Assembly: GCA_947625695.1 (NCBI GenBank)
Contig: CANQPO010000013.1
Coordinates: 1 to 39,705, forward strand
Reading direction: 5' to 3'
Source: an uncultured Clostridia bacterium
GTDB lineage: Bacteria > Bacillota > Clostridia > Christensenellales > Borkfalkiaceae
DNA: 39,705 bases
Part shown: positions 5,693-21,267 of the stretch, piece after piece
How the letters are laid out: each line of letters starts with the position of its first letter
How positions within the stretch are numbered: the first letter of the stretch is position 1
Notes under the pieces: generated by a model
Told to the model about the DNA's origin: nothing
The model's input: only the letters and a program-made list of their open reading frames with translations
Databases searched by the model: none
Made by a program: the position numbers and the translations under genes

Positions 5693-6112
5693 ATGAAAAA
5701 ACAATTGAGGGGGAAATTATTTTTAGGGCTTTCAGCTGTATTGATGAGTTTCGTGATGCTTGCCTGTATTAGTTGTACGAAAAAAGAACCGTGGGATTAT
5801 CCCAATGTTGATTGGTATTCGGAAGATCCTGTGGTGGAATTGCACACGGAATATTCCGGAGAGCCGTCGATAGGATATATGGAGATCAACGGACAACAAG
5901 TACAGGTATATCTATGTTGGGGACCGCCGACTTACACGTTCTCGATCTATGTTTATAATTCAGAAGATGGAATATCGGTTGGAACTGATGAGTTGTTATT
6001 GAGCGGTAAAGTGAAGTACGACTCAGAAACAGCGACCTTGCTTATAAGTACAGATAATGTGTTCGAGTCTGCCTTTTCGACCATCGTGCTAAGTAGGCGT
6101 ATTACCGAGTAG
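5693..6112 (+). CDS. Small putative lipoprotein
   Basis: 139 aa, unknown function. The N-terminus (MKKQLRGKLFLGLSAVLMSF) is a signal peptide. Two cysteines follow (MLAC and CISC). The first fits a relaxed lipobox with Met at -3, so lipid attachment is likely but not certain. The mature part is a beta-rich domain of about 110 residues with acidic character and no known motif. It lies 21 bp after the 142-aa gene and ends before a strong terminator at 6208, consistent with a two-gene operon. The upstream ribosome site (AGAGAG) is weak. Confidence 0.75.
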   Translation: MKKQLRGKLFLGLSAVLMSFVMLACISCTKKEPWDYPNVDWYSEDPVVELHTEYSGEPSIGYMEINGQQVQVYLCWGPPTYTFSIYVYNSEDGISVGTDELLLSGKVKYDSETATLLISTDNVFESAFSTIVLSRRITE

Positions 6113-6761: not shown

Positions 6762-8048
6762 TTATTCCTCGGCGAATTTGATGACGTCCACGGGGCGTTT
6801 TTTCGCCTCGCGCAGGACGGGGAAGAGCGCGGAAAGGAGGGAAACGGCAAGGCACAGTGCAAAGACGCCGATAAACACGAGCGGCTGATAGGCGATAATC
6901 GCAACGTTCGTTCTCACCGCCGAGGCGATGAGCGTATTGCAAAACGGCGCGATCCCCGCGGTAAGGGCAAGGGCGAGCGCGCCCGAAAGAACCCCCAAAA
7001 ATCCGCTCTCGATGAGGAAAATCTTCAAAACGTCTGCGCTTCTTCCCCCCAGCGCGCGCAAAATGCCGATCATCTGCCGCTTTCCGTCGATGGAGAGATT
7101 GATAAACTGGAAGATCATGAGGGCGGAGAAGGCGGCAAGCACGCCGCCGACCGCTCCGAACGCGCTCGTGATTTTTGCGATCTCCTCGCTGAGCTTTGTA
7201 AACGGCTGAAACAGTTCGCTTCGGTATTCGGGGTGCGAATCGAAAAAGTCGCGCACCTTCTCCCCCGTCGCGGCGGAGCCGTCCCCCGCAAAATAGCCGA
7301 CGTCCACATTCTTTGCAAGCGTTTGAAAGAAGTCTCTGCTCACAAACAGCGCGCCCGTGTACGGCTCTATTCCCACGCACGGACCGAACGTGATGGAAGA
7401 AAACGTCCCTTCCGTCTCGGCATACTGCTTGGCGTAGGAGCAGCCGTCGTTTTGATAGACTCCCGCGATGACGACCGCGCTCGGCGAGGGAAATCTGAAT
7501 TCAAGCTCTTGCCCGATAAGCCCCTCCGCGCTCTCGGCAAGCCCGCTGGCGAGCAAGCCGTTTGCAAGGCAGGACGGAATGAGGACCTCCCCTCCCGCAA
7601 GTCCGCCCTTTCCCGCGAGAAGCTCTATCCCCTCGGCAGAAAGGATCTCTTCGTCAAAACAGCCGACTACCCCTACCTGCACGGTCACATGTACGTGGTG
7701 TTGTACCATGTAGGAGGGCATGCCGCTTGCCGCCTCCTCCCCGCATTCGTAGTACGCTTCTCTAAAAGAGAGCGCGCCGCAGGGTAACCCCCATTCGGTA
7801 GAGAGCTGCTTTACATTGTCGTAGGTCAGCGTTTCGGTCGGATAGAGGGAGATGGCGTCGCCGAATTGCACGTAAGTTTGCACTTTGGCGCGGGCTTCGT
7901 CGTAGGAACCCACAAGGATGGCGAGCCCCGTCATCCCGAAGGCGACGGCCGCAAGCAGCACGGTAAGGCAGAACCGCACGGGTTTTTTGATGGAAAGCCC
8001 CATTTTCAGGGCAGTTTTCAGCGGCAATTTATGTTTTCTTTTTGCCAT
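6762..8048 (-). CDS. FtsX/MacB-type ABC transporter permease
   Basis: 428 aa. One N-terminal membrane helix (about 25-47), an extracellular domain of about 240 residues, and three C-terminal helices (near 295-320, 340-370 and 385-410) with the FtsX signature stretch GKRQMIGILRALGGRSADVLKIFLIES. This is the MacB/FtsX fold: the membrane part couples ATP hydrolysis by a partner ATPase to mechanical work on substrates outside the membrane, often antimicrobial peptides. It has no ATPase domain, so it must use the ATPase at 11806-12486. Its start overlaps the end of the preceding permease by 20 bp, so translation is coupled. It is the shortest and most diverged of the set, and last gene of the operon. 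Confidence 0.85.
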   Translation of the reverse strand: MAKRKHKLPLKTALKMGLSIKKPVRFCLTVLLAAVAFGMTGLAILVGSYDEARAKVQTYVQFGDAISLYPTETLTYDNVKQLSTEWGLPCGALSFREAYYECGEEAASGMPSYMVQHHVHVTVQVGVVGCFDEEILSAEGIELLAGKGGLAGGEVLIPSCLANGLLASGLAESAEGLIGQELEFRFPSPSAVVIAGVYQNDGCSYAKQYAETEGTFSSITFGPCVGIEPYTGALFVSRDFFQTLAKNVDVGYFAGDGSAATGEKVRDFFDSHPEYRSELFQPFTKLSEEIAKITSAFGAVGGVLAAFSALMIFQFINLSIDGKRQMIGILRALGGRSADVLKIFLIESGFLGVLSGALALALTAGIAPFCNTLIASAVRTNVAIIAYQPLVFIGVFALCLAVSLLSALFPVLREAKKRPVDVIKFAEE

Positions 8049-9933
8049 TTTCTCCTCCCGAAGTTTTCCCCTTGATCATCTCGACGCAGGAATACTTCAA
8101 AAATTTGCGGACGGACAGCGCGGCGCAAAGCAGGGGCAGCCCCACGCTCACGAGTAAGATACACAAAATTTGCAAGATGCCGAAATCGAACAGCGGCACT
8201 CCCCGTACTTGGAGTCCGGTGGGATACATCCAACCCCAACACAGCGCTGCAACGCACGCCGTCGCAAGCAGGAAGATCGCAAGCCCGAGCAACAAACTCT
8301 CCAACAAATAAATTTTGTAGATATCCCGATTGCGCGCGCCGAGCGCTTTCATTACCCCCATCTGCTTGCGTTTCCCCTCCACCGAGGCGGAGATGAGGGT
8401 GAAACAGAGCAGCGCGCCGAAGATGGCGAAGAGCGCCCCGCCCGCCGCGCTGAACGTCTGCATAATGCGGAAGCTCCCCGTGGCGTTGAAAATCAAGCTC
8501 GTCAGTTCATGCTCTTCGGCGATCAAGATGAGGTCGGAAGGATAGGGCATCCCCACGCCGGTGGCGCGGTACCGTTCGATGTTTTCCCCGTGGAGCGCAA
8601 GCACGCTTTTCACCGTCTTTCTGTCCGTCGGGCGGGGCGAGACGACTGCAAACGCCCCTCCATCGGGATAGAAAATGTCCGTCCACGCCTTGCTCACAAA
8701 GAGGTTGTGCTGCAAAAAGAGCTTGCGGTTGAGATAATCGACATTCTCAAGATACCACTCCGCGTTGCAGCCCGTGTCTACCACGCCCGAGATCGTCACC
8801 GTGTAAAACATGTCCTTGGGAACGCCGAAATTTTCGCTGTCGTATTTTCCGAACCGCTCCCCCGTTTGAAGGTTGCCGTAGAGGGCAAGTTTCTTGCCGA
8901 TAAGGTCCTCCGCGCGCGTGACGCGGACGATTTTCCCCTCTTCGATCGCGGGGAATTCCTCCTCGTTCAAGATCACGCCGTCGTACTCCTCGGGGTCGTA
9001 CCACGGCTCCTCGGGAAGGTTGTATTGGGGAACGACCATCTCCCCCGCTTCTACGTCCTCATACAGATAGTAGCCCCGCGCCATGAACTCGTGAAGGAAG
9101 CAGGCGTCGATCGCGACCTCGTCCGCCTTTTGCGGCATATGCCCCGCAAGAAGGGAAAAACCGAACGCTCCAAGCAGTTCCTCTGGAAGATAGGCGAGAT
9201 TTTGCCTCAGATTCGTGTCGTCATACGCCGAGACGCGCGTCGCCACGCGGTGTTCGGAAAGGAGAGGCCCCTCTTCGTTGGAAAAATCGTAGTTGTATTT
9301 TCTCTGATACTCCGCCGAATAGGGAGTCCTCTCCGCAAGAGCCTTCATTTGCCCGAAAAAACGATCCTTGCGCACTTCGTCCATTTGTGAAATTCGCCCT
9401 TCCAACGCCCGTATTTCTTCGTTATAAGAACGCACCGAGGCGCGGCGGTCGTAATCGCCGTAAAAGAGGTTCCATTCGTAGATCTCGCCCGAGGCGATCA
9501 GACCCATATCGTAGCCCCTATCGGGAAAGCTGTAAAAAGTATTCGAACTGTGCCCGTAGGAGATCGGAGCATAGAGCTTGGCAAAGGAAAGCCCCGTCCG
9601 CGCGGAAATTTCGCCGATCTCTTCCCCGCTCAGATATTCCCGCACCGTTCGCTGTCCGACAAGGGGCAGGCTCTCGGAATACAGAAATCCTTGCGAAAGC
9701 GCGCTGTCCTCGCTGAAATCGCCTTTGAGGAATGTCAAGGCGGTGTGCGGCGAAGAGTTGAAAATTTTCACCTGTTTGCCTGTGTAGTCGACGATGAACA
9801 TGGTCGAAGTAAACCCGAACGCCGTGGCGCAAAAGGTGAGGAGCAGCACAGTGATCGCCGCGCGGAGCCAAGTTCCCTTCAATGCGCTCAAAGCGAGCGT
9901 CCATGCGGTTTTGAAAGAAAGTTTATGCTTCAT
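8029..9933 (-). CDS. FtsX/MacB-type ABC transporter permease (paralogue 2)
   Basis: 634 aa. N-terminal helix (about 18-42), a long extracellular domain of about 430 residues, and three C-terminal helices with EGKRKQMGVMKALGARNRDI, the conserved FtsX cytosolic loop. The first 60 and last 140 residues are almost identical to those of the permease at 9963-11816, while the extracellular domain is clearly different. The start ATG has GGAG 10 nt upstream. That ribosome site sits inside a relic of an ATPase C-terminus (9923-9976), showing the gene arose by copying an ATPase-permease pair. It probably pairs with the ATPase at 11806. Confidence 0.88.
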   Translation of the reverse strand: MKHKLSFKTAWTLALSALKGTWLRAAITVLLLTFCATAFGFTSTMFIVDYTGKQVKIFNSSPHTALTFLKGDFSEDSALSQGFLYSESLPLVGQRTVREYLSGEEIGEISARTGLSFAKLYAPISYGHSSNTFYSFPDRGYDMGLIASGEIYEWNLFYGDYDRRASVRSYNEEIRALEGRISQMDEVRKDRFFGQMKALAERTPYSAEYQRKYNYDFSNEEGPLLSEHRVATRVSAYDDTNLRQNLAYLPEELLGAFGFSLLAGHMPQKADEVAIDACFLHEFMARGYYLYEDVEAGEMVVPQYNLPEEPWYDPEEYDGVILNEEEFPAIEEGKIVRVTRAEDLIGKKLALYGNLQTGERFGKYDSENFGVPKDMFYTVTISGVVDTGCNAEWYLENVDYLNRKLFLQHNLFVSKAWTDIFYPDGGAFAVVSPRPTDRKTVKSVLALHGENIERYRATGVGMPYPSDLILIAEEHELTSLIFNATGSFRIMQTFSAAGGALFAIFGALLCFTLISASVEGKRKQMGVMKALGARNRDIYKIYLLESLLLGLAIFLLATACVAALCWGWMYPTGLQVRGVPLFDFGILQILCILLVSVGLPLLCAALSVRKFLKYSCVEMIKGKTSGGENGKKKT

Positions 9934-9976
9934 CAGCTTTCATCTCCGTGCCGGAGACCACTCTACCGTCCGCAAG
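9923..9976 (-). pseudogene. Relic of an ABC ATPase C-terminus
   Basis: On the minus strand this stretch reads LADGRVVSGTEMKADEA and stop, against LADGKVVSDTEMKADEA at the end of the real ATPase (11806-11862). The DNA matches almost base for base. The rest of this ATPase copy is missing. The relic now supplies the ribosome site for the permease at 9933 and, in another frame, the last residues of the upstream permease. Confidence 0.85.
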
Positions 9977-11816
9977 ATTTCTGACTCCGGACATGACGAG
10001 TCCCCTTTTTCCCTTCCACGCTGTTTTTCATCATCTCGACGCAAGAATACTTCAAAAATTTGCGGACGGACAGCGCGGCGCAGAGCACGGGCAGTCCCAC
10101 GCTCACGAGTAAGATACACAAAATTTGCAAGATACCGAAATCGAATACCGGAATGCCATGCACATCAAACCACCCGCCGGGGTATAACCAACCCCAACAC
10201 AGCGCGGCAACGCACGCCGTCGCAAGCAGGAAGATGACAAACCCGAGCAACAAACTCTCCAACAAATAAATTTTGTAAATATCCCGATTACGCGCTCCGA
10301 GCGCCTTCATTACCCCCATCTGCTTGCGTTTCCCCTCCACCGAGGCGGAGATGAGGGTGAAACAGAGAATTGCGCCGAACACTGCCGTAATGACGCCACA
10401 GCCGGAGCTGATTGGCGCAAAAAGATCAAACATGTCGTGCCACCTAAAAAGCAGTCGTGAAATTTCTTTTTCTTCTACGATCAAGAGAAGGTCAGACGGG
10501 AAGTTTTCGCCGATCGGAACTGCGTTGTAGCGGTCAAACGACTCTTCAAGGAGAGAGATCACCCTTTCGATGGCCTTTCTATCCGTTGGACGGGGCGCGA
10601 TCACTTCATACGCTTCGCCGTTCGGGAAAAAAATGTCTGTCCACGCTTTACTCACATAAATGCAGTCTTGCAAATAGAAATTACGCGACGTACTGCTTAT
10701 GCTTTTATAGAAGTCGATCCCGCAACCCGTGTCCAAAACGCCCGTGATCGTAACGATATAATACTCGTCTGCGGGAGTATGGAAATAACTGTCCACTCTG
10801 TGTCCGAATATGGTGCCGCTTTCGAGATTGCCGAGCAGCGCGATCTTTTTCCCCACAAGGTCCTCCGCCTTGGTCACCTTCACCACTTTGCTCTCGTCGA
10901 TGGCGGGAAATTCGTCCTCATTCAGAATGTAATATGCGGGCAAATTCGGGTCGTACCATTCTTCTCCGGAAAGATTGTACATCGGCTCCGCCATGTTCCC
11001 CGCCTCAACGTCCTCGTAAAGATAATATCCCCGCTTCATAAATTCATGGAGAAAGCACTCGTTAATTGCCACCTCGTCTGCTTCTTGCGGCATTTTCCCC
11101 GCAAGGAGAGAAAAGCCAAACTCTCCCAAAGTAACTTCGGGAATATAGGCTAAATTCTGCGCATATCTGACATCGCTATCGGAAACGGGGGTGCTGACGC
11201 CGTGCTCGGTTTCGTCGGGGACATATTTTTCGCTATATGCTTTTTCATATGGAGTATGAAGGAGATACATACCTAATGTTTCCCGATTGATCGTCCCATC
11301 CAGCAATCCTTCGTTAAAAGACCGAACGGAGGCGCGGCGGTCGAAATCTCCGTAAAAGAGATTGTATCTCGGAGCGCTGCAAGAGGGAAGCATGCCCATA
11401 TAGTAATCGTCGTCCATGAAGGCGCGCATACTCGGCGTGGGGGCAAATATCCTTGCAAATTCGAGCCCTGTGGTCTCTTCGATGCGCGTGATCTCGCTTC
11501 TCGAAAGATATTCTCGCACATCAGTTCGGCCCGGGGCGACCGGAACATGAATTACTTCATCGAAATAGGAATCGCGTTCGGACACCGTGCCGTCGCTCTT
11601 ATCGGCCTTGACAAAACCGACCGTAGACAGCGGAGAGAGGTTGAAAATTTTCACCTGTTTGCCGGTGTAGTCGGCGATGAACATGGTGGATGTAAACCCG
11701 AACGCCGTGGCGCAAAAGGTGAGGAGCAGCACGGTGATCGCCGTGCGGAGCCAAGTTCCCTTCAATGCGCTCAAAGCGAGCGCCAATGCCGTTTTGAAGG
11801 GGAGCTTATGCTTCAT
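9963..11816 (-). CDS. FtsX/MacB-type ABC transporter permease (paralogue 1)
   Basis: 617 aa, same plan as its neighbour: N-terminal helix, an extracellular domain of about 410 residues, three C-terminal helices and the EGKRKQMGVMKALGARNRDI loop. The ATG overlaps the ATPase gene by 11 bp, so the two are translationally coupled and form the founding pair of the locus. Its C-terminal tail (RHVRSQKSCGR) is odd: it is read out of frame from the ATPase relic, replacing the tail seen in the paralogue. Likely role is export of, or defence against, a peptide or lipid at the outer face; the substrate cannot be told from the sequence. Confidence 0.88.
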   Translation of the reverse strand: MKHKLPFKTALALALSALKGTWLRTAITVLLLTFCATAFGFTSTMFIADYTGKQVKIFNLSPLSTVGFVKADKSDGTVSERDSYFDEVIHVPVAPGRTDVREYLSRSEITRIEETTGLEFARIFAPTPSMRAFMDDDYYMGMLPSCSAPRYNLFYGDFDRRASVRSFNEGLLDGTINRETLGMYLLHTPYEKAYSEKYVPDETEHGVSTPVSDSDVRYAQNLAYIPEVTLGEFGFSLLAGKMPQEADEVAINECFLHEFMKRGYYLYEDVEAGNMAEPMYNLSGEEWYDPNLPAYYILNEDEFPAIDESKVVKVTKAEDLVGKKIALLGNLESGTIFGHRVDSYFHTPADEYYIVTITGVLDTGCGIDFYKSISSTSRNFYLQDCIYVSKAWTDIFFPNGEAYEVIAPRPTDRKAIERVISLLEESFDRYNAVPIGENFPSDLLLIVEEKEISRLLFRWHDMFDLFAPISSGCGVITAVFGAILCFTLISASVEGKRKQMGVMKALGARNRDIYKIYLLESLLLGFVIFLLATACVAALCWGWLYPGGWFDVHGIPVFDFGILQILCILLVSVGLPVLCAALSVRKFLKYSCVEMMKNSVEGKKGTRHVRSQKSCGR

Positions 11817-12486
11817 CGGCTTTCATCTCCGTGTCGGAGACCACCTTGCCGTCCGCAAGTTCGATGATGCGGTCCCCGAACGTCTCCGCAAAATCGCGGT
11901 CGTGCGTGACGACGATGACGAGCTTCTTCTCGGAGAGCTCTTTGAGAAGGGTCAGAATGTTTTTGCCCGTCTCCTCGTCGAGTGCGCCCGTGGGCTCGTC
12001 GGCAAAGATGATCTGCGGGTCCTTCATGAGGGCGCGGGCAATCGCCACCCGTTGCCGCTGTCCGCCCGAGAGCTCCATGGGCTTGCGCTTTGCCATGCCT
12101 TCGAGCCCCACGAGGGAGAGCATTTCCTCTACGTTTTCTGCCTTTCTCCCGATGAGCTCGAGCCCCAAGGCGACGTTCTCCTCCACCGTGAATTCGGGCA
12201 GGAGGTTGTACTCCTGAAAGACGAACCCGAGATATTCGCCGCGGTAGTTGTCGTAGTCGGCGTCTTTGAAATTTTTCGACGAGACGCCGTTTAAGACAAG
12301 TTCCCCTTCGGTGGGCGTATCGAGCCCGCCCATGAGGTGCAAAAGGGTGCTCTTGCCCGAGCCGCTCTTGCCGAGGATGAACACGAGCCCGCGCTCGCCG
12401 AACTGAAGGTCTATCCCCTTGAGCGCCTCCACAGGCACTCCTTTTTTGGGATAGTAGGTTTTTTTGAGATTTTTGACTTCGAACAT
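11806..12486 (-). CDS. ABC transporter ATPase, MacB/LolD type
   Basis: 226 aa from the ATG at 12486, chosen because GGAG lies 9 nt upstream and the domain starts there (MFEVKNLKKTYYPKKG). Walker A GKSGSGKST (near 38-46), Q loop FVFQEYNLL, signature LSGGQRQRVAIARAL, Walker B IIFADEPTGALD and H-loop THD are all intact. The protein binds and hydrolyses ATP in the cytosol and drives MacB/FtsX-like permeases. It is the only stand-alone ATPase for five intact permeases and one broken one in the region, so it is probably shared. First gene of the operon 11806 -> 9963 -> 8029 -> 6762. Confidence 0.93.
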   Translation of the reverse strand: MFEVKNLKKTYYPKKGVPVEALKGIDLQFGERGLVFILGKSGSGKSTLLHLMGGLDTPTEGELVLNGVSSKNFKDADYDNYRGEYLGFVFQEYNLLPEFTVEENVALGLELIGRKAENVEEMLSLVGLEGMAKRKPMELSGGQRQRVAIARALMKDPQIIFADEPTGALDEETGKNILTLLKELSEKKLVIVVTHDRDFAETFGDRIIELADGKVVSDTEMKADEA

Positions 12487-12624
12487 GGCGATGATCTCCT
12501 TTTTATTTTCTCCTGCTGAGCAGCATGTTAGCACGGTCAGCAAATTTATACAAGAGGTTTGGCGTATGCGGTAGCAATGACGGCGTAATTTGCACAATGA
12601 TATTTCGGTAGAGACCGATGTTTT

Positions 12625-12960
12625 AATTTTGTCATTTCACATCGAGCACTATTCTAAATTACGTCACCCTGCCCCGCATTCCTAATTACGTCACCCTGAG
12701 CGTAGTCGAAGGGTGTCCGCATTATAATAAGGACATTCCTCGACTGCGCTACTTCGCCTTCGGCTCGTGCCGCGCTTAGAGAAACAGAACTTCGCGCGGG
12801 GCGGATTGACGTTATTTGAGAACGGTGTTTCGTCCCGCGCTTCTATTATGTCATTTCGACCAAGCGAAGCGCGTGGAGAAATCTCACATTATTAAAATAA
12901 GGTAGAGATGTCTCGACAAGCTCAACATGACGTTATTTGAGAACGGTGTTTCGCTTTCCT
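12625..12960. repeat. Cluster of family A repeats
   Basis: Several overlapping copies: TTACGTCACCCTGAGCG, GTGCCGCGCTTAGAGAAACAG, GTCATTTCGACCAAGCGAAG, GTGGAGAAATCTCACATTAT and GACGTTATTTGAGAACGGTG (the last twice, near 12810 and 12932). No gene is seen from 12487 to 13163. Confidence 0.7.
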
Positions 12961-12964
12961 CCTC

Positions 12965-13160
12965 GCTGTCCCTTTTAGGGAAAGTGGCATGAGCGAAGCG
13001 AATGCCGAAAGGGTTTTCTAAAACCCCTCAGTCACTTCGTGACAGCTCCCCCAATGGGGGCGCCGAGAGTTTGCCCACCCCCTTAGTCCCCCTCCGGTGG
13101 AGGGGGTTCCGCTTTCATGCCCCCTCCGTGGGAGGGGGTAGGGGGTGGGGCGTCCAATTT
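12965..13160. repeat. Family C repeat followed by family B repeat
   Basis: Family C (12965-13068): CTGTCCCTTTTAGGGAAAG, then AAACCCCTCAGTCACTTCGT, then GACAGCTCCCCCAATGGGGG. Family B (13073-13160): CACCCCCTTAGTCCCCCTCC, GGTGGAGGGGG, then CCCCCTCCGTGGGAGGGGG. The family B part ends at the stop of the permease at 13164 and may help terminate it. Confidence 0.75.
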
Positions 13161-13163
13161 CCC

Positions 13164-14825
13164 CTACTTCTCCTTCTTGCCTTTTTCGGTCGCCTTTATC
13201 ATCTCCACGCAGGAGCGGCGCATGAAGAGCCGCAGCGGGAGAAGCACCGACAAAACGGGCACAATCAGGGAAGTCCCAGCAAGGAACAATGCGTTCCAGC
13301 CGTTGAAGATAAACGGGCTCGTTCCTTCAAAGCCTCGGTAGGCAAAGAGCGGCCCGAAGTAGCAGTAGAATACGGTAAGAGTGATCACAAGGGCCACCAA
13401 AAAGACGACAAGCCCGAGAAATGCCGTTCCGATGAGGAAATACGTCGATATTTTCCCCCTGCTCCCGCCAAGGGCGCGCATGACGCCGATCTCCCTGTGC
13501 GCTTGCTGCAGGACGGCGTTCATGAGGACGGCGTTCAGAACGACCGAGAACACGAGGAAAATAAGCCCGATCCCACTGAGAATGAGCGACGTTTGTTGTG
13601 CCGTTGTCGTTCCGTACTCAAACAAAGAGGAGGAGCCTTCCGCTCCGATCATGAAATTGTAATAGTCAAGCTGTGCGGCCGCGTAGGGATAGCTCTTTGT
13701 AAACTCCGCAAGTTTCTCCTCCTGTTGCCGTTTGCTCAAATCGAGCACGAGGTTCAGCGTCTCATCCGATATGGGGCCTTTGGCGATCAAGCCGCCCGTA
13801 TAGAGGTCCCCTTTCTCCAGATGCGCTTGCCGCCAAGCCTCCGAATGGAAAACGATCTGTCCGAACCAGCCGTACTCGTCCGCGTTCCCGTCAAAGCACC
13901 CGCCGCCGAAAGCAAGGGCCTTGGCGTTGAGGCTTGTATATCTTTCGGTCGAACTCGCGTCCACGACTCCGACGATCACGCTTTGTTCGTAGCGATCTGT
14001 TTCGGGATAAATCCCGTCCATGTGACTTTCAAGAAGTTCGGGAGCCTGAAAGGGCATAAAGGTGGCAAGCGTTTTGCCGAGAATATCTTGATAGGAGGAG
14101 ATCGCTATCCCGTTCTCTTCGGGCGGCTGTACATCGTAATCTACGACATACGCGTCTTGGTATTCGTCGTTATAATATCCCATTTCCTTCTTCAGGCCGC
14201 CGTTTGCGATCGCGTCGATATAGCCGCCCCACGCAAACCGTTCATAGAGGCCGACGTCGATGGCGATCTCGTTCTCCGCTTGGGGATACCGTCCCGCCGC
14301 AAGTTGAAAACCGAACTCGTGAAACGCCTGCTCTTCTCCCGCGATGGCGCTTAGAAGCCTGATCATGTGCGGGGGGCGGTTTTCTTGCTCCTCGAGCCAT
14401 TCGCTGTATTCCGCCGTAGGTTTCCCGTCGATCTCCTTTACGCCGCGGAAATAGAACTTATCAATGTACGCCTGCACCTCGGTATCGGTGCGGCAAACAG
14501 AGAGAAACCCGAGCGGAAGCTCCTCGATCTGCCGCACTTCGCTCGGAGAATAGTATGGTCTGCCCCACACGTCTCCCGACGCGTGCAGACCCGTGAGGCT
14601 GTCAACGTTTATACTGATCTCATTCGAAAAGGTCAAATATTTTCTCTCGTGTAGCATGTTCTGATACGCCCGATGAAAATACTCCTCGCGGTCATAGGAA
14701 TAGCCCGTAAAGGCAAGGGAAAAAATGGCAAGGGAGATCGCCGTAAGCAACACGGTGATCCCCCTCGTCACCCACTTCCCGCGGAAGGTAAATTTCAGTG
14801 ATGTATAAACGGGATTGATCTTCAT
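13164..14825 (-). CDS. FtsX-type ABC transporter permease (Xre-linked cassette 1)
   Basis: 553 aa from the ATG at 14825 (MKINPVYTSLKFTFRGKW), with GAGG 5 nt upstream and TATAAT near 14880 on the minus strand. One N-terminal helix, an extracellular domain of about 330 residues, and three C-terminal helices with EIGVMRALGGSRGKISTYF, the FtsX loop. The C-terminus (RLFMRRSCVEMIKATEKGKK) is shared with the other cassette permeases. Directly upstream lies a conserved operator-like box and then the membrane-bound Xre gene 14962-15528, so this permease is probably controlled by that regulator. No ATPase is encoded in the cassette. Confidence 0.87.
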   Translation of the reverse strand: MKINPVYTSLKFTFRGKWVTRGITVLLTAISLAIFSLAFTGYSYDREEYFHRAYQNMLHERKYLTFSNEISINVDSLTGLHASGDVWGRPYYSPSEVRQIEELPLGFLSVCRTDTEVQAYIDKFYFRGVKEIDGKPTAEYSEWLEEQENRPPHMIRLLSAIAGEEQAFHEFGFQLAAGRYPQAENEIAIDVGLYERFAWGGYIDAIANGGLKKEMGYYNDEYQDAYVVDYDVQPPEENGIAISSYQDILGKTLATFMPFQAPELLESHMDGIYPETDRYEQSVIVGVVDASSTERYTSLNAKALAFGGGCFDGNADEYGWFGQIVFHSEAWRQAHLEKGDLYTGGLIAKGPISDETLNLVLDLSKRQQEEKLAEFTKSYPYAAAQLDYYNFMIGAEGSSSLFEYGTTTAQQTSLILSGIGLIFLVFSVVLNAVLMNAVLQQAHREIGVMRALGGSRGKISTYFLIGTAFLGLVVFLVALVITLTVFYCYFGPLFAYRGFEGTSPFIFNGWNALFLAGTSLIVPVLSVLLPLRLFMRRSCVEMIKATEKGKKEK

Positions 14826-14903
14826 GACGGCCTCATCGCGCAAAGCTCGGAAACTTTTTGCGTCTTTGGAGATGGCTCTATTATAACATGCTTTTGCGCG
14901 ATT

Positions 14904-14956
14904 GTGTGTAAAAATACTGTAACTTTTTGTGCCAAGATTTGCTACTTGTGCGACAA
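14904..14956 (-). promoter_or_regulatory. Conserved regulatory box upstream of permease cassette 1
   Basis: About 53 bp almost identical to 15567-15618 and, truncated, to 18946-18992. On the plus strand it includes GTAAAAATACTGTAACTTTT and GCTACTTGTGCGACAAATTT. The minus-strand TATAAT of the permease follows it. Its presence upstream of the permease and of the Xre gene suggests the operator of that Xre protein. Confidence 0.6.
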
Positions 14957-14961
14957 ATTTG

Positions 14962-15528
14962 CTATTCTGCTTTGTCCTGTTCTGCACTCCATTGCTTCTT
15001 TCGTCTTTTCCATCGCAGGAAAAACATGACCGCAACGGAGATCACCACGGCGCAGAGAACGATCACCAAAAACCAGAATAAGACGGCATAGTCCATGTGA
15101 GCTACCGTTATGACCACGGTTTCGGCTCCTGTATTGGAAATAAAGGCTATTTCGCCGCAGATATACAGCGCCAGAGCGAGAACAGGCACAAGACAGCAGA
15201 GCGCGATCAGCGCATTCCGCCTTCTCTTTTTCTTCTTTTCCTCGGCTTGCATTTGCAGGAACAGCTGTATCGTGGCTCGTTCGTTTGTTTGCGCAGGAGC
15301 TTGCTCGGAAGTTCTTTCCGCAGTTTCGGCGACGGCCGCCTCTTCGGCAAGTTCGGCATAGCCAACGCCGAGCGCATGGCATATGTTTTCCATGTCCTCC
15401 GCGCGCGGGACGGCGCGGCCGTTCTCCCAACGGCACACCGTCTGCCGCGAAACGCCGACCTCTTCCGCCAATCTTTCCTGCGAAATGCCGCGGAGCTTCC
15501 GCAGATGTTTTAACTTTTCCCTATCCAT
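14962..15528 (-). CDS. Membrane-anchored Xre-family regulator (copy 1)
   Basis: 188 aa. Residues 4-58 form a Cro/C1-type helix-turn-helix (LRGISQERLAEEVGVSRQTV, then CRWENGRAVP). A Gln/Glu/Thr-rich linker and a basic stretch (EEKKKKRRRN) lead to two membrane helices at about 105-127 and 143-168. A DNA-binding domain tethered to the membrane fits a sensor of cell-envelope stress or of transporter state. No ribosome site precedes the ATG; TATAAT ends 12 nt upstream, so the mRNA has a very short leader. It lies between the two box copies and reads into the permease at 14825. Near-identical copy at 18997-19569. Confidence 0.85.
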   Translation of the reverse strand: MDREKLKHLRKLRGISQERLAEEVGVSRQTVCRWENGRAVPRAEDMENICHALGVGYAELAEEAAVAETAERTSEQAPAQTNERATIQLFLQMQAEEKKKKRRRNALIALCCLVPVLALALYICGEIAFISNTGAETVVITVAHMDYAVLFWFLVIVLCAVVISVAVMFFLRWKRRKKQWSAEQDKAE

Positions 15529-15540
15529 AAATATATTTTC

Positions 15541-15618
15541 ATTATAACCGATTTTCGGGAAATCGTGTGTAAAAATACTGTAACTTTCTGTACCAAAATT
15601 TGCTACTTTTGCGACAAT
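15541..15618 (-). promoter_or_regulatory. Promoter and operator region of Xre copy 1
   Basis: TATAAT on the minus strand (15541-15546), a palindrome CGATTTTCGGGAAATCG (15549-15565) in the spacer, then the conserved box (15567-15618). The arrangement suggests autoregulation. Confidence 0.6.
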
Positions 15619-15688
15619 TTTACTCTTTGGCTCGCCGGAGGCCGGTTTTGCGCGGCTACCCGTTGAGGGAGGGCAAGATTTCCCAATA

Positions 15689-15880
15689 TGTCATTTCGAG
15701 CGGAGCATTCTCAATTTGTCATTTCGACCAAGCGAAGCGCGTGGAGAAATCTCACATTATTAAAATAAGGTAGAGACCCATTCGACTCCACTTCGTTCCG
15801 CTCAGGGTGACATTTTAGAAAGGAGCCCACCCCCTTAAGTCCCCCTCCGGTGGAGGGGGTAGGGGGGTGGGCGTCCAATT
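15689..15880. repeat. Family A then family B repeats
   Basis: TGTCATTTCGAGCGGAGCAT (15689) and a second GTCATTTCGACCAAGCGAAG, TGGAGAAATCTCACATTAT, then CACTTCGTTCCGCTCAGGGT. Family B (15829-15880) with CCCTCCGGTGGAGGGGG ends at the stop of the permease at 15885. No gene between 15529 and 15884. Confidence 0.75.
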
Positions 15881-15884
15881 TCCC

Positions 15885-17372
15885 CTACTTCCCCTTTTTC
15901 CCTTTCACGCTGTCTTTCATCATCTCCACGCAGGAACGTTTCATAAATGCAATCAGCGGGATGAGCACCGATAAGACGGGCACAATAAAGCTGAATCCCG
16001 CCAAAATGAGCACGTTCCAACCCGTTAAAACATAGCGCGAAACGCCGATGTAGTATTCCTCAAGTCCCCTCAGAATAAAGCGGTAATAAAGCCCCAAAAG
16101 CAGGGCGAGCGCGACCAAAAAGATGAAGAAACACATGACGAGGGTGCCGCAGAGATAGATGAGGGCGATCTTCTTTTTACTCCCGCCCAAGGAGCGCAAT
16201 ATGCCGATCTGTTTGCGGCTGCGTTCGAGCAACGCCGTCATAAGGTAGGCGTTCAAAACAATGCAGAGCACGGCAAAAATGCTGCCGGTCCCGCACAGCA
16301 GGAAAAGGTCGCGCCGTCTGCCGGACAAGGTGAATAAGTCCTCGAACTCATCCATTGTTTTGGGGTAGAGGTCGAACTCGGACAAAAGATAGATAAAACG
16401 ATACAAACCGAGATCTAATGGTGTCCCTGTCGTCCGATATGCGTATTCCATAAGGTCGAGGGCGACGTCCACGCATTTTGCGATCGTCTCGCGGTCCTTC
16501 GGCGCGGGGGCGAAGAGACTACGCGGCGCCTTTTCCGAAAGAAAGGTCTCCTCCCATTCTTGTGAGACAAAGATCCTCCCCGTGGGCGAGTCGAAGCGGA
16601 TGCCGAAGCGGGATGGGTCGAAACCGGTATCAACAACACCCACGATCGCGACCTCGAAAAGCTCGGGAGTTGCCCCGCCATGCGAACCGAGGATCCCCTC
16701 CTCCGTGGAATACTCGACGACGATCGTTTTGCCGATGAGGTCCTGCGGGGTTTCGATTCTTTCGACGGCGCACTCCTCATCGAGATACCAATAACCGTCC
16801 TCACACGGGAGGTTCGCCCCTATGACTTCCGGGTTGTAGGCGGGAGAGCCGTCCTCCCACTTCCCGTCCTTTGCAAGATGGTAATTCTTTCGCACGTTGC
16901 GGTAGCCGTATTCGTGGAAATACTCGAACTCGCATTCGCTGACGGCGATTTCGTAGAGTGTTTCGGGAGCTCTGCCCGCCAAAAAACCAAAGCCGAACTC
17001 GTCTGCGGCAGTGAGCAACCCGAGCTCTTCGTAGTACTCCCCGCCGCCCGCGCGGTCGAGTTCGATTTTGCATTCGTAGTCGCGTGCAAAGGAGAGTCCC
17101 GTTCTTTGCTCGATCTCGGCAACATGCTCGGGGGTATAATAGGTTCTCCCAAGCTCGTTTTGCCCCGTGTAGTAAATGTATTCAAATCCCGTTCGCTCGA
17201 GAAAGTTGGAGTAACCGCGCACGATGTAGTCCCGTTCGTTGTAGGTATAGCCCATGGTGACGAATGCGAAGAGGGCAAAAGAGAAAGCCGAGAGGACGAT
17301 CGTAATGACGCGCGTGATCCATTTCCCGTACAGGGAAAGTTTGAGCGCATGGATAAACGGAAGATTTTTCAT
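15885..17372 (-). CDS. FtsX-type ABC transporter permease
   Basis: 495 aa from the ATG at 17372, preceded by GGAGG at 5 nt; the start given by the longest frame (17429) has no such site. N-terminal helix, an extracellular domain of about 280 residues, then three C-terminal helices with RKQIGILRSLGGSKKKIALI, the FtsX loop. The tail (AFMKRSCVEMMKDSVKGKKG) matches the pseudogene permease at 17831. No Xre gene stands directly in front; the pseudogene cassette does. It needs an ATPase from elsewhere, most simply the one at 11806. Confidence 0.87.
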   Translation of the reverse strand: MKNLPFIHALKLSLYGKWITRVITIVLSAFSFALFAFVTMGYTYNERDYIVRGYSNFLERTGFEYIYYTGQNELGRTYYTPEHVAEIEQRTGLSFARDYECKIELDRAGGGEYYEELGLLTAADEFGFGFLAGRAPETLYEIAVSECEFEYFHEYGYRNVRKNYHLAKDGKWEDGSPAYNPEVIGANLPCEDGYWYLDEECAVERIETPQDLIGKTIVVEYSTEEGILGSHGGATPELFEVAIVGVVDTGFDPSRFGIRFDSPTGRIFVSQEWEETFLSEKAPRSLFAPAPKDRETIAKCVDVALDLMEYAYRTTGTPLDLGLYRFIYLLSEFDLYPKTMDEFEDLFTLSGRRRDLFLLCGTGSIFAVLCIVLNAYLMTALLERSRKQIGILRSLGGSKKKIALIYLCGTLVMCFFIFLVALALLLGLYYRFILRGLEEYYIGVSRYVLTGWNVLILAGFSFIVPVLSVLIPLIAFMKRSCVEMMKDSVKGKKGK

Positions 17373-17409
17373 TGCGACCTCCGAAAAAATTTTGGCACAG
17401 ACGTGATTT

Positions 17410-17826
17410 AGAATGCCCCCACCCGTCACCTACGGTGCCGCCCTCCCCCAACAAGTTGGGAGAGGGCTAAGGCCTACCCCTTCAAGGGGGAGGCTCCCGC
17501 GTAGCGGGTGGTGGGGGTTCTCGCCGTCCCTAATTTGTCATTTCGAGCGGAGCATTCTCAATTTGTCATTTCGAGCGGAGCATTCTCAATTTGTCATTTC
17601 GAGCGGAGCCGCAGGCGAAGTCGAGAAATCTCGCCTTATGATAATGCGGTAGAGATGTCTCGACTACGCTCGACATGACGTGATTTGGGAAAGGTGCTCT
17701 GCTTCCCCTTGGCTACCCCTTGAGGGGAGCCGAGGGTTTGCCCACCCCCTTAGTCCCCCTCCCGAGGAGGGGGTTCCGCTTTCATACCCCCTCCGTGGGA
17801 GGGGGTAGGGGGTGGGGCGTCCAATT
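17410..17826. repeat. Repeat cluster with a 28-bp tandem array
   Basis: 17412-17520 is GC-rich family B-like DNA (CCCCAACAAGTTGGGAGAGG). The unit AATTTGTCATTTCGAGCGGA starts at 17532, 17560 and 17588, an exact 28-bp period of the head of family A. A family A remainder follows to about 17700 and family B from 17737 to 17826. No gene between 17373 and 17830. Confidence 0.8.
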
Positions 17827-17830
17827 TCCC

Positions 17831-18941
17831 CTACTTCCCCTTTTTCCCTTTCACGCTGTCTTTCATCATCTCCACGCAGGAGCGGCGCATGAAGAGCCTT
17901 AGCGGAAGCAGTACAGACAAAACGGGCACAACAAAGCTGATCCCCGCCAAGATGAGCACTGTCCAACCGCTGTAAACAAATTTGGGCACACCGAACCATT
18001 CATCCGTCATGCGCGGTACGATATAACCGTAATTGATCGCCAAACTCATTGCAAGCGCCACCAAAAAGATGATCCCCGACAGCATGAGCGTACCGATCAA
18101 AAAGTAGCCCGAAACCCGCCTTCGGCTCGCGCCCAAAGAGCGCATAATCCCGATCTGCTTGCGTTTCTTGTTCATCATGGCAGTCATGAGATAGCTTGTC
18201 AAAACAATTGCAAAAACGCAGAAAATTGCCCCCTCGACTCCCCATACCAACGCTTGCGCGCTTTTCCAGCCTGAAAAAAAATAATTGGGGCTGTTGATGT
18301 CTTTTATCTCCAACAGTCTATCCATTTCAACCAGACCCATCGCGGGAACACGTTCAATCGCTTCGGGATGTTGTTGAAGATGCTCCTCAACGAAATCTTT
18401 GGTCAGTGTGATACATTTGCGCAAATGGGCGTCATCGTGCCGTGCTGATTGCGATCTCATGAACGTTCTCGGGATATCTTCCCGCAACGGGCCGGAATCC
18501 AAACCCTTCGTAGACCTCCTCGCTGCCCACAATGGCCATGTTATTTGTTTGGTTGTTTAGGTTGTTATAGATCTCTGCTTTCTCGGGGGTACTATAATCG
18601 GAAGGTAGGATGTATTCGTATTGCCCAAAATCACTGTTCGCAATCATTTTGTCATAAAGATAGACATAGGGCAGCTCCGTTGTCTCCTGAATGCGTGCGG
18701 CTTCCCCGCTCGTCCACTCCCTATATTGCAACATGACGGAGAAATTCACATAGGGGTATATGTTTTCCAGGAAATGGCGATAAGCGCGCAGCAAGTGATT
18801 GTCTTCGTTGTATGTAAAAGCCATGGAAGCAAGCGAAAAGAGCGTAAAGCTGAATGCAGAGAGGAGGATCGTGATCCCCTTCAGGAGCCACTTTCCGCGA
18901 AGAGTGAGTTTCAGTGATGTATAAACGGGATTGATCTTCAT
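17831..18941 (-). pseudogene. FtsX-type permease, broken (Xre-linked cassette 2)
   Basis: The 5' part (18941-18432) reads MKINPVYTSLKLTLRGKW and continues to EIAISTAR and stop. The 3' part (to 17831) continues in another frame from about RHDDAHLRKCITLTKDF through three C-terminal helices to SVKGKKGK. Compared with the permease at 13164, about 200 residues of the extracellular domain are missing at the junction near 18435, and the frame changes there. The region before the ATG has also lost the promoter and ribosome site present in cassette 1: the regulatory box joins almost directly to the ATG. The gene is therefore probably dead, although the C-terminal half could in principle be expressed alone. 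Confidence 0.8.
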
Positions 18942-18945
18942 GACA

Positions 18946-18992
18946 GAAATACTGTAACTTTTTGCACCAAGACTTGCTACTTTTGCGACAAA
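18946..18992 (-). promoter_or_regulatory. Truncated copy of the regulatory box
   Basis: Shares AATACTGTAACTTTTTG and TTGCTACTTTTGCGACAAAT with the boxes at 14904 and 15567, but lacks the GTGTGTAAA side, the -10 and the ribosome site that follow in cassette 1. Confidence 0.6.
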
Positions 18993-18996
18993 TTTG

Positions 18997-19569
18997 CTAT
19001 TCGTGCTGTTCTTTGCCCTGTTCTGCGCTCCGTTGCTTCTTCTGTCTTTTCCATCGCAGGAAAAACATGACCGCAACGGCGATCACCACGGCGCAGAGAA
19101 CGATCACCAAAAACCAGAATAAGACGGCATAGTCCATGTGAGCTTCCATTATGACCACAGTCCCATGCCCTATATCAGAAATAAAGGCTATTTCGCCGCA
19201 GATATACAGCGCCAGAGCGAGAACGGGCACAAGACAGCAGAGCGCGATCAGCGCATTCCGCCTTCTTTTTTTCTTCTTTTCCTCGGCTTGCATTTGCAGG
19301 AACAGCTGTATCGCGGCTCGTTCGTTTGTTTGCGCAGGAGCTTGCTCGGAAGTCCGCTCCGCAGTTTCGGCGACGGCCGCCTCTTCTGCAAGTTCCGAGT
19401 AGTCCACGCCGAGCGCATGGCAAATGTTTTTTATGTCCTCCGCGCGCGGAACGGCGCGGCCATTCTCCCAACGGCACACCGTCTGCCGCGAAACGCCGAC
19501 CTCTTCCGCCAATCTTTCCTGCGAAATGCCGCGTAGCTTCCGCAGATGTTTTAACTTTACCGTATCCAT
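18997..19569 (-). CDS. Membrane-anchored Xre-family regulator (copy 2)
   Basis: 190 aa, nearly identical to copy 1: N-terminal helix-turn-helix (GISQERLAEEVGVSRQTVCR), charged linker, two membrane helices, and a slightly different tail (RSAEQGKEQHE). Differences cluster in the loop between the helices (FISDIGHGTVVIMEAHMDYA against FISNTGAETVVITVAHMDYA), the part expected outside the cell. It remains intact although its permease partner is broken. The promoter differs from that of copy 1: a good -35/-10 pair lies so close to the ATG that the mRNA is probably leaderless. It may still control the permeases at 15885 or 13164 through the shared boxes. Confidence 0.85.
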   Translation of the reverse strand: MDTVKLKHLRKLRGISQERLAEEVGVSRQTVCRWENGRAVPRAEDIKNICHALGVDYSELAEEAAVAETAERTSEQAPAQTNERAAIQLFLQMQAEEKKKKRRRNALIALCCLVPVLALALYICGEIAFISDIGHGTVVIMEAHMDYAVLFWFLVIVLCAVVIAVAVMFFLRWKRQKKQRSAEQGKEQHE

Positions 19570-19575
19570 AAATAT

Positions 19576-19604
19576 ATTATATCATATCTTACGCGCAATT
19601 TCAA
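19576..19604 (-). promoter_or_regulatory. Promoter of Xre copy 2 (leaderless mRNA)
   Basis: On the minus strand TTGAAA (19599-19604), 17-bp spacer, TATAAT (19576-19581), then only 6 nt to the ATG at 19569. The start point must fall at or next to the A of the ATG. Confidence 0.75.
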
Positions 19605-19656
19605 GGGTTGCACGAAAAAATGTCATGCGCTCTGCCGCCCCTCCCTCCTTGCTGTC

Positions 19657-19845
19657 CCCTACTGTCATTTCGAGCGGAGCATTCTCAATTTGTCATTTCG
19701 AGCGGAGCCGCAGGCGAAGTCGAGAAATCTCGCCTTATGATAATGCGGTGGAGACCCATTCGACTCCACTTCGTTCCGCTCAGGGTGACATTTTAGAAAG
19801 GAGCCCACCCCCTTAGTCCCCCCTCCTCAGGAGGAGGACGCTTTC
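19657..19845. repeat. Family A (tandem) then family B repeats
   Basis: Two tandem heads of family A (CTGTCATTTCGAGCGGAGCA at about 19661, then AATTTGTCATTTCG 28 bp later), a remainder matching 17600-17640 and 15776-15825, and family B (CCACCCCCTTAGTCCCCCCT) from 19803. No gene between 19570 and 19870. Confidence 0.75.
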
Positions 19846-19870
19846 TTGTCTATATTTCAGACAAAAAAAT

Positions 19871-20815
19871 TCACTTCATTTCCCTTTCCCAAAATGCAAG
19901 GCTGTGCGGGAACTTCCACAAAAGCGCCCAGCGATAGTGCAAAAAGAACCGCTGCGGAAGTTGGGAGAGCGCCTCCTTCATCTCCCCTTTGAACGCCTCG
20001 TCCTCCCGCTCCTCTTGGGTGCGTTTTGCGAATTCTTCTTCCTGCGCGCGCAGTTCGGAGAAGAAGTTCACCGTCTGCACACTGCTCCGCACGAGGTCGA
20101 ATAAAAGCCCAAAAAGCGCGCACCCGCCGACGATCCACTCTGCAACGGGCGGCAACTCGCGGGAATAAAACGAGCCGAGGAACATGAGGAGCAATACGCT
20201 CGCAAGCGTAAAGAACGTCCTGCCGAAGTCCCATAGGAGTTCTTTCCGCCTCCGTTTGCACAAGATCGCCTTCCCCGCTGTCCAGAGAACAGCACAAGCA
20301 CAATAGACGATCGCCGTGCAGAGATAGAGATGATCGCCAAAAGCGGGAATGACGTGTTCCAACAGGTAAAGCAGGTACCCGACCGCCACGAGCAAAATGA
20401 CATGCAGGGCGACGGGGAACACCCCAAAGGAATTGAGGCGGAAAGACTTGTGCCGCACGCAGTCGAAAAGATAGTGCAGGAGCCAATCAAAGACGCCGAC
20501 AAGGGTAAACACCCAAAGATAGCGGGGCAAAATTCGGTTGTACCCCCATTGTTGATCGGTCAAGAAGAACTTCACGCTCTCGGGCATGTCGCGCTGATAG
20601 AGGGCTTGGAAGAAGATCATTACAAGCAAAACAAGCGCCGCAAAGAGAAAGAAGGAGAACACCGTGGTGTAGGACGGGAGCTTGACGCCCCGCTTTCCGT
20701 CCCGTATGCGCGAAAGGAGCACGCGGGAAAGGAGGAGACGGTAGCCATAGCACGCCCCCGCGCCGAGGAGGAGAACGCCGAAGAAGGATAAAAGCAAGAT
20801 ACCCATTACGCTCAT
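19871..20815 (-). CDS. Multi-pass membrane protein paired with a LytTR regulator
   Basis: 314 aa, family not recognised. About seven hydrophobic segments: residues 3-25, 50-72, 98-118, 130-152, 160-180, 198-218 and 222-242. A cytosolic charged tail follows (RAQEEEFAKRTQEEREDEAF) with coiled-coil character. Its start overlaps the end of the LytTR gene by 4 bp (20812-20815), so the pair is co-translated. LytTR proteins without a receiver domain are often inhibited or signalled by a membrane partner encoded next door; that is the likely role here, but it is inferred from the layout only. Confidence 0.75.
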   Translation of the reverse strand: MSVMGILLLSFFGVLLLGAGACYGYRLLLSRVLLSRIRDGKRGVKLPSYTTVFSFFLFAALVLLVMIFFQALYQRDMPESVKFFLTDQQWGYNRILPRYLWVFTLVGVFDWLLHYLFDCVRHKSFRLNSFGVFPVALHVILLVAVGYLLYLLEHVIPAFGDHLYLCTAIVYCACAVLWTAGKAILCKRRRKELLWDFGRTFFTLASVLLLMFLGSFYSRELPPVAEWIVGGCALFGLLFDLVRSSVQTVNFFSELRAQEEEFAKRTQEEREDEAFKGEMKEALSQLPQRFFLHYRWALLWKFPHSLAFWEREMK

Positions 20816-21267
20816 ATGCCGAACCTCCTCTTGAATTCCGCATAATAGGTGCGGGAGACGGAGGTGCGGATGCCGCCCTCCAAGATGAGTTCGAAGCGGC
20901 TGCCGAGCGCGGGGACGATTTTGACGAGCTTCTTTCGGTTGATGATCGCCGATTGGTTGACCCGCACGAAATCGTCGGAAGGAAGCTCTCCCTCGATGAC
21001 ATAGAGGCGTTCGCGCAGGCGGAATTTTTCTCCCCTGCTGTGGAAGATGAGATCGTGGTTAAAGCTCTCGACCATGGCGATCTCTTCGCGGTCGAGAAGC
21101 ACGTTTTCCCCGCGCTCGTTCTGCACGAGAAAGCGGTCGGGAAAGAAATTCTCCTCCGAGAGGACGAGTTCGCCGTCGGCAGACACGGTAAAACCGCCCG
21201 CGCGTAGCATGCGCTCGAGCTCTTCCCGCTTTTCTTCTCTGCAACAGAGCCTGACCTTTACGTCCAT
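20812..21267 (-). CDS. LytTR-domain transcription regulator
   Basis: 151 aa. The C-terminal part from about residue 50 is a LytTR DNA-binding domain: ENVLLDREEIAMVES, FRLRERLYVIEGELP, then FVRVNQSAIINRKKLVKIV and TSVSRTYYAEFKRRFG. The N-terminal 45 residues form a small alpha/beta segment, not a phosphoacceptor receiver domain, as in the short LytTR regulators that act with membrane partners. The gene is followed by its membrane partner with a 4-bp overlap. LytTR proteins commonly control bacteriocin, competence or transporter genes, which would suit the permease array downstream. Confidence 0.88.
   Translation of the reverse strand: MDVKVRLCCREEKREELERMLRAGGFTVSADGELVLSEENFFPDRFLVQNERGENVLLDREEIAMVESFNHDLIFHSRGEKFRLRERLYVIEGELPSDDFVRVNQSAIINRKKLVKIVPALGSRFELILEGGIRTSVSRTYYAEFKRRFGI

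What the first reader, a model, noticed from the sequence alone, without database searches (positions are those of the whole stretch)
6762..21267. Expanded FtsX permease array with one ATPase, membrane-bound Xre regulators and variable ectodomains
Five intact FtsX/MacB-type permeases and one broken one lie on one strand with a single stand-alone ATPase. The sequence shows paralogues whose membrane ends are nearly identical while their extracellular domains differ strongly. Two of the cassettes carry a membrane-tethered Xre protein instead of the usual two-component system. A LytTR/membrane protein pair closes the block. Inference: a modular export, immunity or sensing system in which ectodomain variety sets the substrate and one ATPase powers all permeases, with regulators that sense at the membrane. 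I do not know a described system with this makeup.
Basis: partly seen in the sequence, partly recalled or inferred. Interest (0 to 1): 0.75.

Follow-up and report, generated by a model that had tools for sequence, protein, structure and literature searches.

The report
Shared-motor transporter with swappable outer parts
In an uncultured gut bacterium, one motor protein and one short membrane partner lie beside several longer membrane partners with very different outer domains; relatives suggest that these outer domains are swapped as cassettes together with a matching secreted protein, which would be a new modular version of a known transporter class.

Summary
The anatomy is confirmed: five intact FtsX permeases, one broken, one stand-alone LolD-like ATPase, two Xre-2TM genes and a LytTR/membrane pair. 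The locus recurs. Of 103 same-genus genomes, 15 carry the stand-alone ATPase at 364 bits or more. These 15, and one further contig, show one ATPase of this kind, one short P5-type permease and 0-4 intact long permeases. Short and long permeases fall on separate branches. I infer a constant motor module (ATPase + short permease) serving exchangeable long subunits. The end/ectodomain contrast is real for one pair, P3/P4, and is a recombination mosaic, not positive selection. In relatives, a secreted protein family not found in the window's genome lies directly upstream of a long permease in 8 of 8 genus-wide hits; in one relative, secreted protein and ectodomain look swapped together. Xre-2TM is facultative (6 of 15 arrays) and not one clade; palindromic operator-like sites lie between it and its target. 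Function (immunity to, or handling of, the secreted protein) is inferred. Novelty: new variant of the type VII (MacB/FtsX/Lol) ABC class.

The parts
6762..8048 (-). P5, short FtsX permease (428 aa), the constant subunit found once per array
   Evidence: PF02687 E 1.6e-14; hydropathy 4 TM; separate branch with one row per array; PDB sequence matches MacB, YtrF, LolF
8029..9933 (-). P4, long FtsX permease (634 aa); overlaps P5 by 20 nt
   Evidence: PF02687; orthologues in three relatives at 84-89%
8425..9753 (-). ectodomain block of P4 that differs from P3 (mosaic block, P4 codons 61-503)
   Evidence: synonymous-site scan, 0 of 1000 shuffles as extreme
9963..11816 (-). P3, long FtsX permease (617 aa); overlaps the ATPase gene by 11 nt
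   Evidence: PF02687; coordinates
10383..11636 (-). ectodomain block of P3 (P3 codons 61-478), near saturation against P4 while the end windows have dS 0.24-0.34
11806..12486 (-). stand-alone LolD/FtsE-type ATPase (226 aa)
   Evidence: ABC_tran; LolD TIGR02211 E 3e-62 but below the cut-off; 15 of 103 genus genomes
13164..14825 (-). P2, long FtsX permease (553 aa), downstream of X1
   Evidence: PF02687; 88% to the sister-species copy
14929..14945 (.). operator-like palindrome between X1 and P2
   Evidence: 3 matches in the window, 0.04 expected; same layout in relatives
14962..15528 (-). X1, Xre-type protein with two C-terminal TM helices (188 aa)
   Evidence: HTH_3 E 2.5e-15; TM by hydropathy
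15590..15606 (.). operator-like palindrome upstream of X1 (no mismatch to the pattern)
15885..17372 (-). P1, long FtsX permease (495 aa)
   Evidence: PF02687
17831..18941 (-). P0, broken long FtsX permease: N-terminal and C-terminal pieces in different frames, part of the ectodomain missing
   Evidence: relative G476 has an intact counterpart, 68% to the C-terminal piece
18964..18980 (.). operator-like palindrome between X2 and P0
18997..19569 (-). X2, Xre-2TM protein (190 aa), 90% identical to X1
19871..20815 (-). membrane protein with no Pfam, NCBIfam or PHROG match above cut-off; partner of LytTR
   Evidence: 85% in G476, same order
20812..21267 (-). LytTR DNA-binding protein without receiver domain
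   Evidence: PF04397 E 1.1e-18; 92% in G476

Best explanation
This is a shared-motor type VII (MacB/FtsX/Lol-like) ABC system. The ATPase and the short permease P5 form a constant module. The long permeases (P1-P4; P0 is dead) are alternative partners, each giving a long:short heterodimer whose long ectodomain sets what is recognised outside the cell. A long permease travels as a cassette, in relatives with a secreted protein (SEC) directly upstream, and cassettes are duplicated, recombined and lost. The window is an array without SEC genes. Some cassettes are controlled by a membrane-bound Xre one-component regulator that binds palindromes in front of the cassette. The most likely role is protection against, or handling of, SEC-type secreted proteins on the outer face of the membrane, with SEC-less permeases as orphan immunity genes. 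Shown: gene content, one ATPase of this kind and one short permease per array, separate branches, mosaicism, SEC adjacency, repeated operator-like sites. Inferred: heterodimer, exchange of partners, DNA binding, the immunity role.
For: One ATPase of this kind and one short permease in the 15 genus arrays and contig L101, long permeases 0-4 intact. Short, long and fused permeases separate in the tree (long 94/92, short 92/55). Overlapping genes ATPase-P3 and P4-P5. No second stand-alone ATPase close to this one in the own genome. Mosaic P3/P4 with breakpoints at the ectodomain edges, 0 of 1000 shuffles, against 213 and 62 of 1000 for two orthologue controls. SEC next to a long FtsX in 8 of 8 hits over 103 genomes. 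Cassettes a and c in G433 share the SEC signal-peptide end and the permease C-terminal end and differ between. Operator-like sites in front of targets in three species. Identical duplicate long permease in G462.
Against: G433 has six lone FtsX permeases, all most similar to long ones, but no stand-alone ATPase of this kind and no short permease was found; the genome is 89% complete, so they may be missing or a fused motor may serve. The window's genome gave no SEC hit at E <= 1e-3 in an 81.6% complete assembly. SEC has no family or significant fold match, so nothing shows that it is toxic. SEC divergence tracks permease TM ends about as well as ectodomains (r 0.77 and 0.82). G435, G439 and G034 have a further, more distant ATPase gene close by (34-43%). 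The long permeases of G016, G435 and G439 lie outside the main long clade, and the short clade's SH-aLRT support is 55. Operator similarity in the three close species may be common descent.
Confidence: 0.5

Rival explanations
1. A general antimicrobial-peptide resistance array: several 4-TM FtsX permeases, induced by membrane-bound Xre sensors, protect against different cell-wall-active peptides of competitors, as BceAB does with a two-component system and BcrAB with BcrR. SEC proteins are only helpers or passengers.
For: A membrane one-component regulator inducing an ABC transporter is the BcrR arrangement (passage in PMC3968067; passages of PMC10269533). MacB-type transporters are linked to protection of Gram-positive bacteria against peptides (PMC5985334 passages). 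Duplicated and decaying cassettes fit changing exposure.
Against: SEC adjacency in 8 of 8 hits and the joint SEC/ectodomain mosaic suggest a dedicated partner. No two-component system and no 10-TM BceB-type permease among the ten intact genes scanned in the window block (TM counts).
Confidence: 0.25
2. An envelope-remodelling signalling complex like FtsEX: the long ectodomain binds and activates a secreted partner (SEC) at the cell wall instead of moving a substrate.
For: FtsX works with secreted wall hydrolases or their activators (abstract starts in the search listing). SEC is adjacent and has a signal-peptide-like start.
Against: SEC has no hydrolase family match in Pfam or NCBIfam. SEC was found in 4 of the 15 array genomes.
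Confidence: 0.12
3. A duplicated and decaying permease cluster with no joint function: the short and long permeases work independently and the single ATPase is a remnant.
For: Broken copies in the window, G441 and G016. MAG incompleteness could hide other ATPases.
Against: dN/dS below 1 in the P2, P4 and P5 pairs compared. One ATPase of this kind and one short permease in all 16 arrays seen.
Confidence: 0.08

Closest known systems
Type VII ABC transporters (MacB, LolCDE/LolDF, FtsEX, YtrF)
   Same: FtsX C-terminal domain, one TM then a large ectodomain then three TM, LolD-like ATPase
   Different: One ATPase and one short permease beside several alternative long permeases; no MacA-type adaptor among the ten intact genes scanned in the window block; relatives not scanned for adaptors
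BcrR and its ABC transporter in Enterococcus faecalis (passage, PMC3968067; passages, PMC10269533)
   Same: One-component membrane regulator next to an ABC transporter; inverted repeats before the target (the BcrR repeats are recalled, the window's are)
   Different: Two TM helices here (BcrR: four, recalled); the transporter is FtsX-type; a site also lies before X1 itself
Lactococcin 972-type operons such as scbABC (passages, PMC11796350)
   Same: Sec-type secreted protein followed by genes for predicted immunity and transport proteins; the window ATPase's third NCBIfam hit is TIGR03608, a putative bacteriocin export ATPase, below the cut-off (that the model belongs to this system is read from its name)
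   Different: Full-length SEC proteins are about 240-290 aa with no bacteriocin family match; several permeases beside one ATPase
Group II ECF importers (abstract start in search listing, PMC7755397)
   Same: Proposed logic: one energising module, exchangeable specificity subunits
   Different: An importer class; no homology claimed or tested
LytTR regulatory systems (abstract, PMC6193735)
   Same: LytTR protein without receiver domain plus adjacent membrane protein
   Different: Direct repeats and inhibition not tested; the link to the array rests on order kept in one relative, G476

Membership tests
Type VII (MacB/FtsX) ABC transporter | FtsX C-terminal permease domain | tested here: met
   PF02687 above cut-off in all five intact permeases
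Type VII (MacB/FtsX) ABC transporter | 1+3 TM topology with the ectodomain between TM1 and TM2 | tested here: met
   simple hydropathy scan, four TM in each intact window permease; no 3D model available
Type VII (MacB/FtsX) ABC transporter | mechanotransmission | not testable with these tools
   needs biochemistry
LolCDE-like heterodimer | two different permeases with one ATPase gene | tested here: met
   gene content: one short permease plus long permease(s) (in G441 only a broken one) and one ATPase of this kind in 15 genus arrays and L101; physical pairing not tested
LolCDE-like heterodimer | LolD equivalog score | tested here: not met
   TIGR02211 210 bits, cut-off 307.75
MacAB | adaptor protein MacA in the operon | tested here: not met
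   window block only: none of its ten intact genes matches an adaptor family; relatives not scanned
BceAB module | 10-TM permease and two-component system | tested here: not met
   window block: 4-TM permeases, Xre instead, no kinase or receiver
BcrR-type membrane regulator | N-terminal Xre HTH plus C-terminal TM helices, next to an ABC transporter | tested here: met
BcrR-type membrane regulator | binds inverted repeats before the target and senses a ligand | tested here: inconclusive
   palindromes present; binding and sensing not tested
Lactococcin 972 system | bacteriocin and immunity families of that system | tested here: not met
   no Pfam or NCBIfam match above cut-off for SEC; ATPase 188.1 bits against TIGR03608 cut-off 254.85
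LytTR regulatory system | LytTR regulator without receiver, adjacent membrane protein | tested here: met
   same pair in G476
LytTR regulatory system | direct repeats upstream of the operon promoter | not tested
   -

The most novel reading that the evidence does not exclude
A polymorphic effector-immunity system: a secreted effector (SEC) and its cognate long FtsX ectodomain are exchanged as one recombination cassette between conserved flanks, and all long permeases dock onto one shared ATPase/short-permease motor, so a genome can stockpile orphan immunity permeases like the window's array.
Probability: 0.3. Interest if true: 0.85.

Novelty: new variant of a known kind. Interest (0 to 1): 0.6.

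Why it matters
If partner exchange on a common motor is real, type VII ABC exporters have a modular form comparable in logic to group II ECF importers. If the SEC-ectodomain pairing reflects specificity, it gives a computable list of secreted proteins with matched receptors in gut Clostridia, and a way to test how an FtsX ectodomain reads a protein outside the cell.

Tried and rejected
Positive selection on ectodomains: not supported. Ectodomain dN/dS exceeds that of the TM ends (P4 0.26-0.31 against 0.14-0.16; P5 0.25-0.40 against 0.15-0.22; P2 0.63 against 0.36) but stays below 1.

Each permease with its own ATPase elsewhere: not seen in the own genome, with the MAG caveat; ABC ATPase hits under 45% identity were not classified.

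Xre-2TM as a dedicated partner of FtsX arrays: rejected as a rule. 30 non-array Xre-TM loci (some with more than two TM) were checked within about 1.5 kb or to the contig end: no FtsX and one ATPase-like hit. These 30 include 6 loci from earlier searches; the 7 array rows aside, one search listed 44 hits and loci were held for only part of them.

Known defence systems: only generic ATPase and HTH matches. Known fold for SEC: four PDB sequence hits, best E 0.087, not significant. SEC/ectodomain co-divergence: does not separate ectodomain from TM ends. The G433 pair b/c gave a different best split from a/c and a/b (SEC codon 218 to permease codon 45), so the shared-flank pattern is clearest for a/c. 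An order-wide search (396 genomes drawn evenly, E <= 1e-30) matched only the window's genome; the array genomes G026, G034 and G035, whose proteins are in the model, were apparently not drawn.

Paper listings that showed nothing describing such an array. Any claim that it is undescribed rests on these listings only.
Full report
Observation. The minus strand of the window carries, in order of transcription, LytTR, a membrane protein, X2 (Xre-2TM), broken P0, P1, X1 (Xre-2TM), P2, ATPase, P3, P4, P5. All five intact permeases pass the FtsX cut-off. The ATPase is closest to LolD but below that model's cut-off. ATPase/P3 and P4/P5 overlap, and 29 nt separate P3 from P4, so ATPase-P3-P4-P5 is probably one operon (inference). 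P0 has its N-terminal and C-terminal parts in different frames. Compared with its counterpart in G476 a stretch of roughly 125 aa of ectodomain is missing, and its upstream region lacks the -10-like stretch seen before P2.

Genome context. The genome is a 1.89 Mb MAG, 81.6% complete. Its other FtsX domains are in two fused ATPase-permease proteins (contigs C38, C42) and in one two-domain permease on C78 with a separate ATPase gene on the same contig. No second stand-alone ATPase close to this one was seen; ABC ATPases under 45% identity were not classified.

Recurrence. In 71 of 79 the matching ATPase lies in one polypeptide with FtsX; FtsX arrays with a free ATPase of this kind are L099, L100 and L101; L125, L128, L137, L148 and L159 have a short, split or unlabelled ATPase frame or end there, and were not followed up. 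Over 103 genus genomes, 98 have a hit at E <= 1e-75. The 15 best genomes, all at 364 bits or more, have an ATPase frame of at most 420 aa; most hits below are in frames over 700 aa, a few are shorter, some at contig ends; the listing was cut at about 260 bits. G483 and G016 have contigs of the same lengths as L099's and L100's and are taken as the same.

Array rule. Neighbourhoods of the 15 and of L101 show one ATPase of this kind and one short P5-type permease each (in G026 it is cut by the contig end; it is most similar to the short ones). G435 and G439 have a further ATPase gene at 34% next to the array, and G034 one at 43% about 2.5 kb behind P5, with other membrane genes. Intact long permeases: window 4, G476 3, G483 2, G462 2, G026 2, one each in G470, G035, G034, G453, G435, G016, G442, G439, G449 and L101, none in G441 (one in two pieces). 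G016 has a further broken one, and G439 a fragment at the contig edge. G462's two long permeases are identical in DNA, a recent duplicate or an assembly artefact. In the tree of 52 C-terminal domains, 15 short rows, 11 of 13 fused rows and 21 long rows each group apart (long 94/92, short 92/55); long rows of G016, G435 and G439 lie outside. G026's short fragment and the G433 permeases were not in the tree.

Mosaicism. Between P3 and P4, dS is 0.24-0.34 in the first and last windows and about 0.8 to saturation between. A scan of synonymous identity puts the breakpoints at codons 61 and 478/503, 0 of 1000 shuffles as extreme; orthologue controls gave 213 (P4) and 62 (P2) of 1000, and P1/P2 751 of 1000. 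Between window and G483, P5 has dS 1.2 while the ATPase has 0.36, P4 0.31 and P2 0.14; window P5 against G476 and G470 has 0.35-0.36. So parts of the locus have different histories, and P5 was probably replaced in the G483 lineage (inference).

Secreted partner. In G483, between Xre and P2, lie a 151-aa and a 240-aa protein with signal-peptide-like starts. The 240-aa family (SEC) occurs in 5 of 103 genus genomes, 8 hits at E <= 1e-3. Four of these are rows of the search model and had been seen next to permeases; the four in G433 were found by the search. All 8 lie directly upstream of a long FtsX gene on the same strand, under 100 nt away. G433 has two further lone permeases without a SEC hit; all six G433 permeases are most similar to long ones. 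Cassettes a and c in G433 lie on different contigs. Their SEC codons 1-40 are 99% identical in DNA and 226 bp around the permease end are 94% identical, with near-saturation between (0 of 1000 shuffles). Copies a/b share only the right flank clearly, and b/c split elsewhere. One copy (d) is shortened to 114 aa.

Regulation. Of 15 genus arrays, 6 have Xre-2TM upstream: window, G476, G483, G441, G462, G035. Several contigs end close upstream, so this is a minimum. Xre of the window, G476 and G483 form a clade (100/99); the others lie elsewhere on long branches, so recruitment more than once or rapid change; one origin is not ruled out. A search with X1 alone in 61 genomes listed other Xre genes of G035 but not its array Xre at E <= 1e-10. 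A 17-bp palindrome occurs three times in the window, 0.04 expected, upstream of X1 and between Xre and target in both cassettes, and behind Xre in G483 and G476; G462 has its own repeated palindrome-like stretch before a long permease and before SEC. In three close species this could be common descent. LytTR and its membrane partner stand in the same order before Xre in G476.

Interpretation. One short permease per array against a variable number of long ones is what an obligate long:short heterodimer with exchangeable long partners would leave. Type VII transporters act on things already outside (recalled), and MacB-type ones are linked to protection against peptides (passages of PMC5985334), so a secreted protein coupled to its own long permease suggests immunity to, or handling of, SEC. 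This last step is inference. The organism is taken to be an uncultured Clostridia species from record titles of relatives; the window itself is unnamed.

A recount confirmed 71 of 79 fused loci, the LytTR-membrane-Xre order in G476, the long kinship of the six G433 permeases and the short kinship of G026's fragment. Statements mended after it: 'one ATPase of this kind' in place of 'one ATPase', the adaptor test limited to the window block, P2's dN/dS added.

Noticed in passing
window 12849-12908, 15717-15776, 17564-17655, 19663-19754: Near-identical intergenic repeats (up to 100% over 60 bp) stand between the array genes; possible recombination substrates.
   Followed up: partly
L099:8308-8832: A resolvase-domain gene (PF00239) lies directly behind P5 in the sister species, on the opposite strand.
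   Followed up: no
L099:1121-1576: A second small protein with a signal-peptide-like start (151 aa, no family) behind the operator-like site in the sister species.
   Followed up: no
window 23125-26586: One 1153-aa protein fuses solute-binding domains, permease and ATPase of an importer.
   Followed up: no
window 3775-4257: Small protein with an SRA domain match (PF18491).
   Followed up: no
window 5150-5671 and 5693-6112: Two small proteins with signal-peptide-like starts, no Pfam family, on the opposite strand just beyond P5.
   Followed up: no
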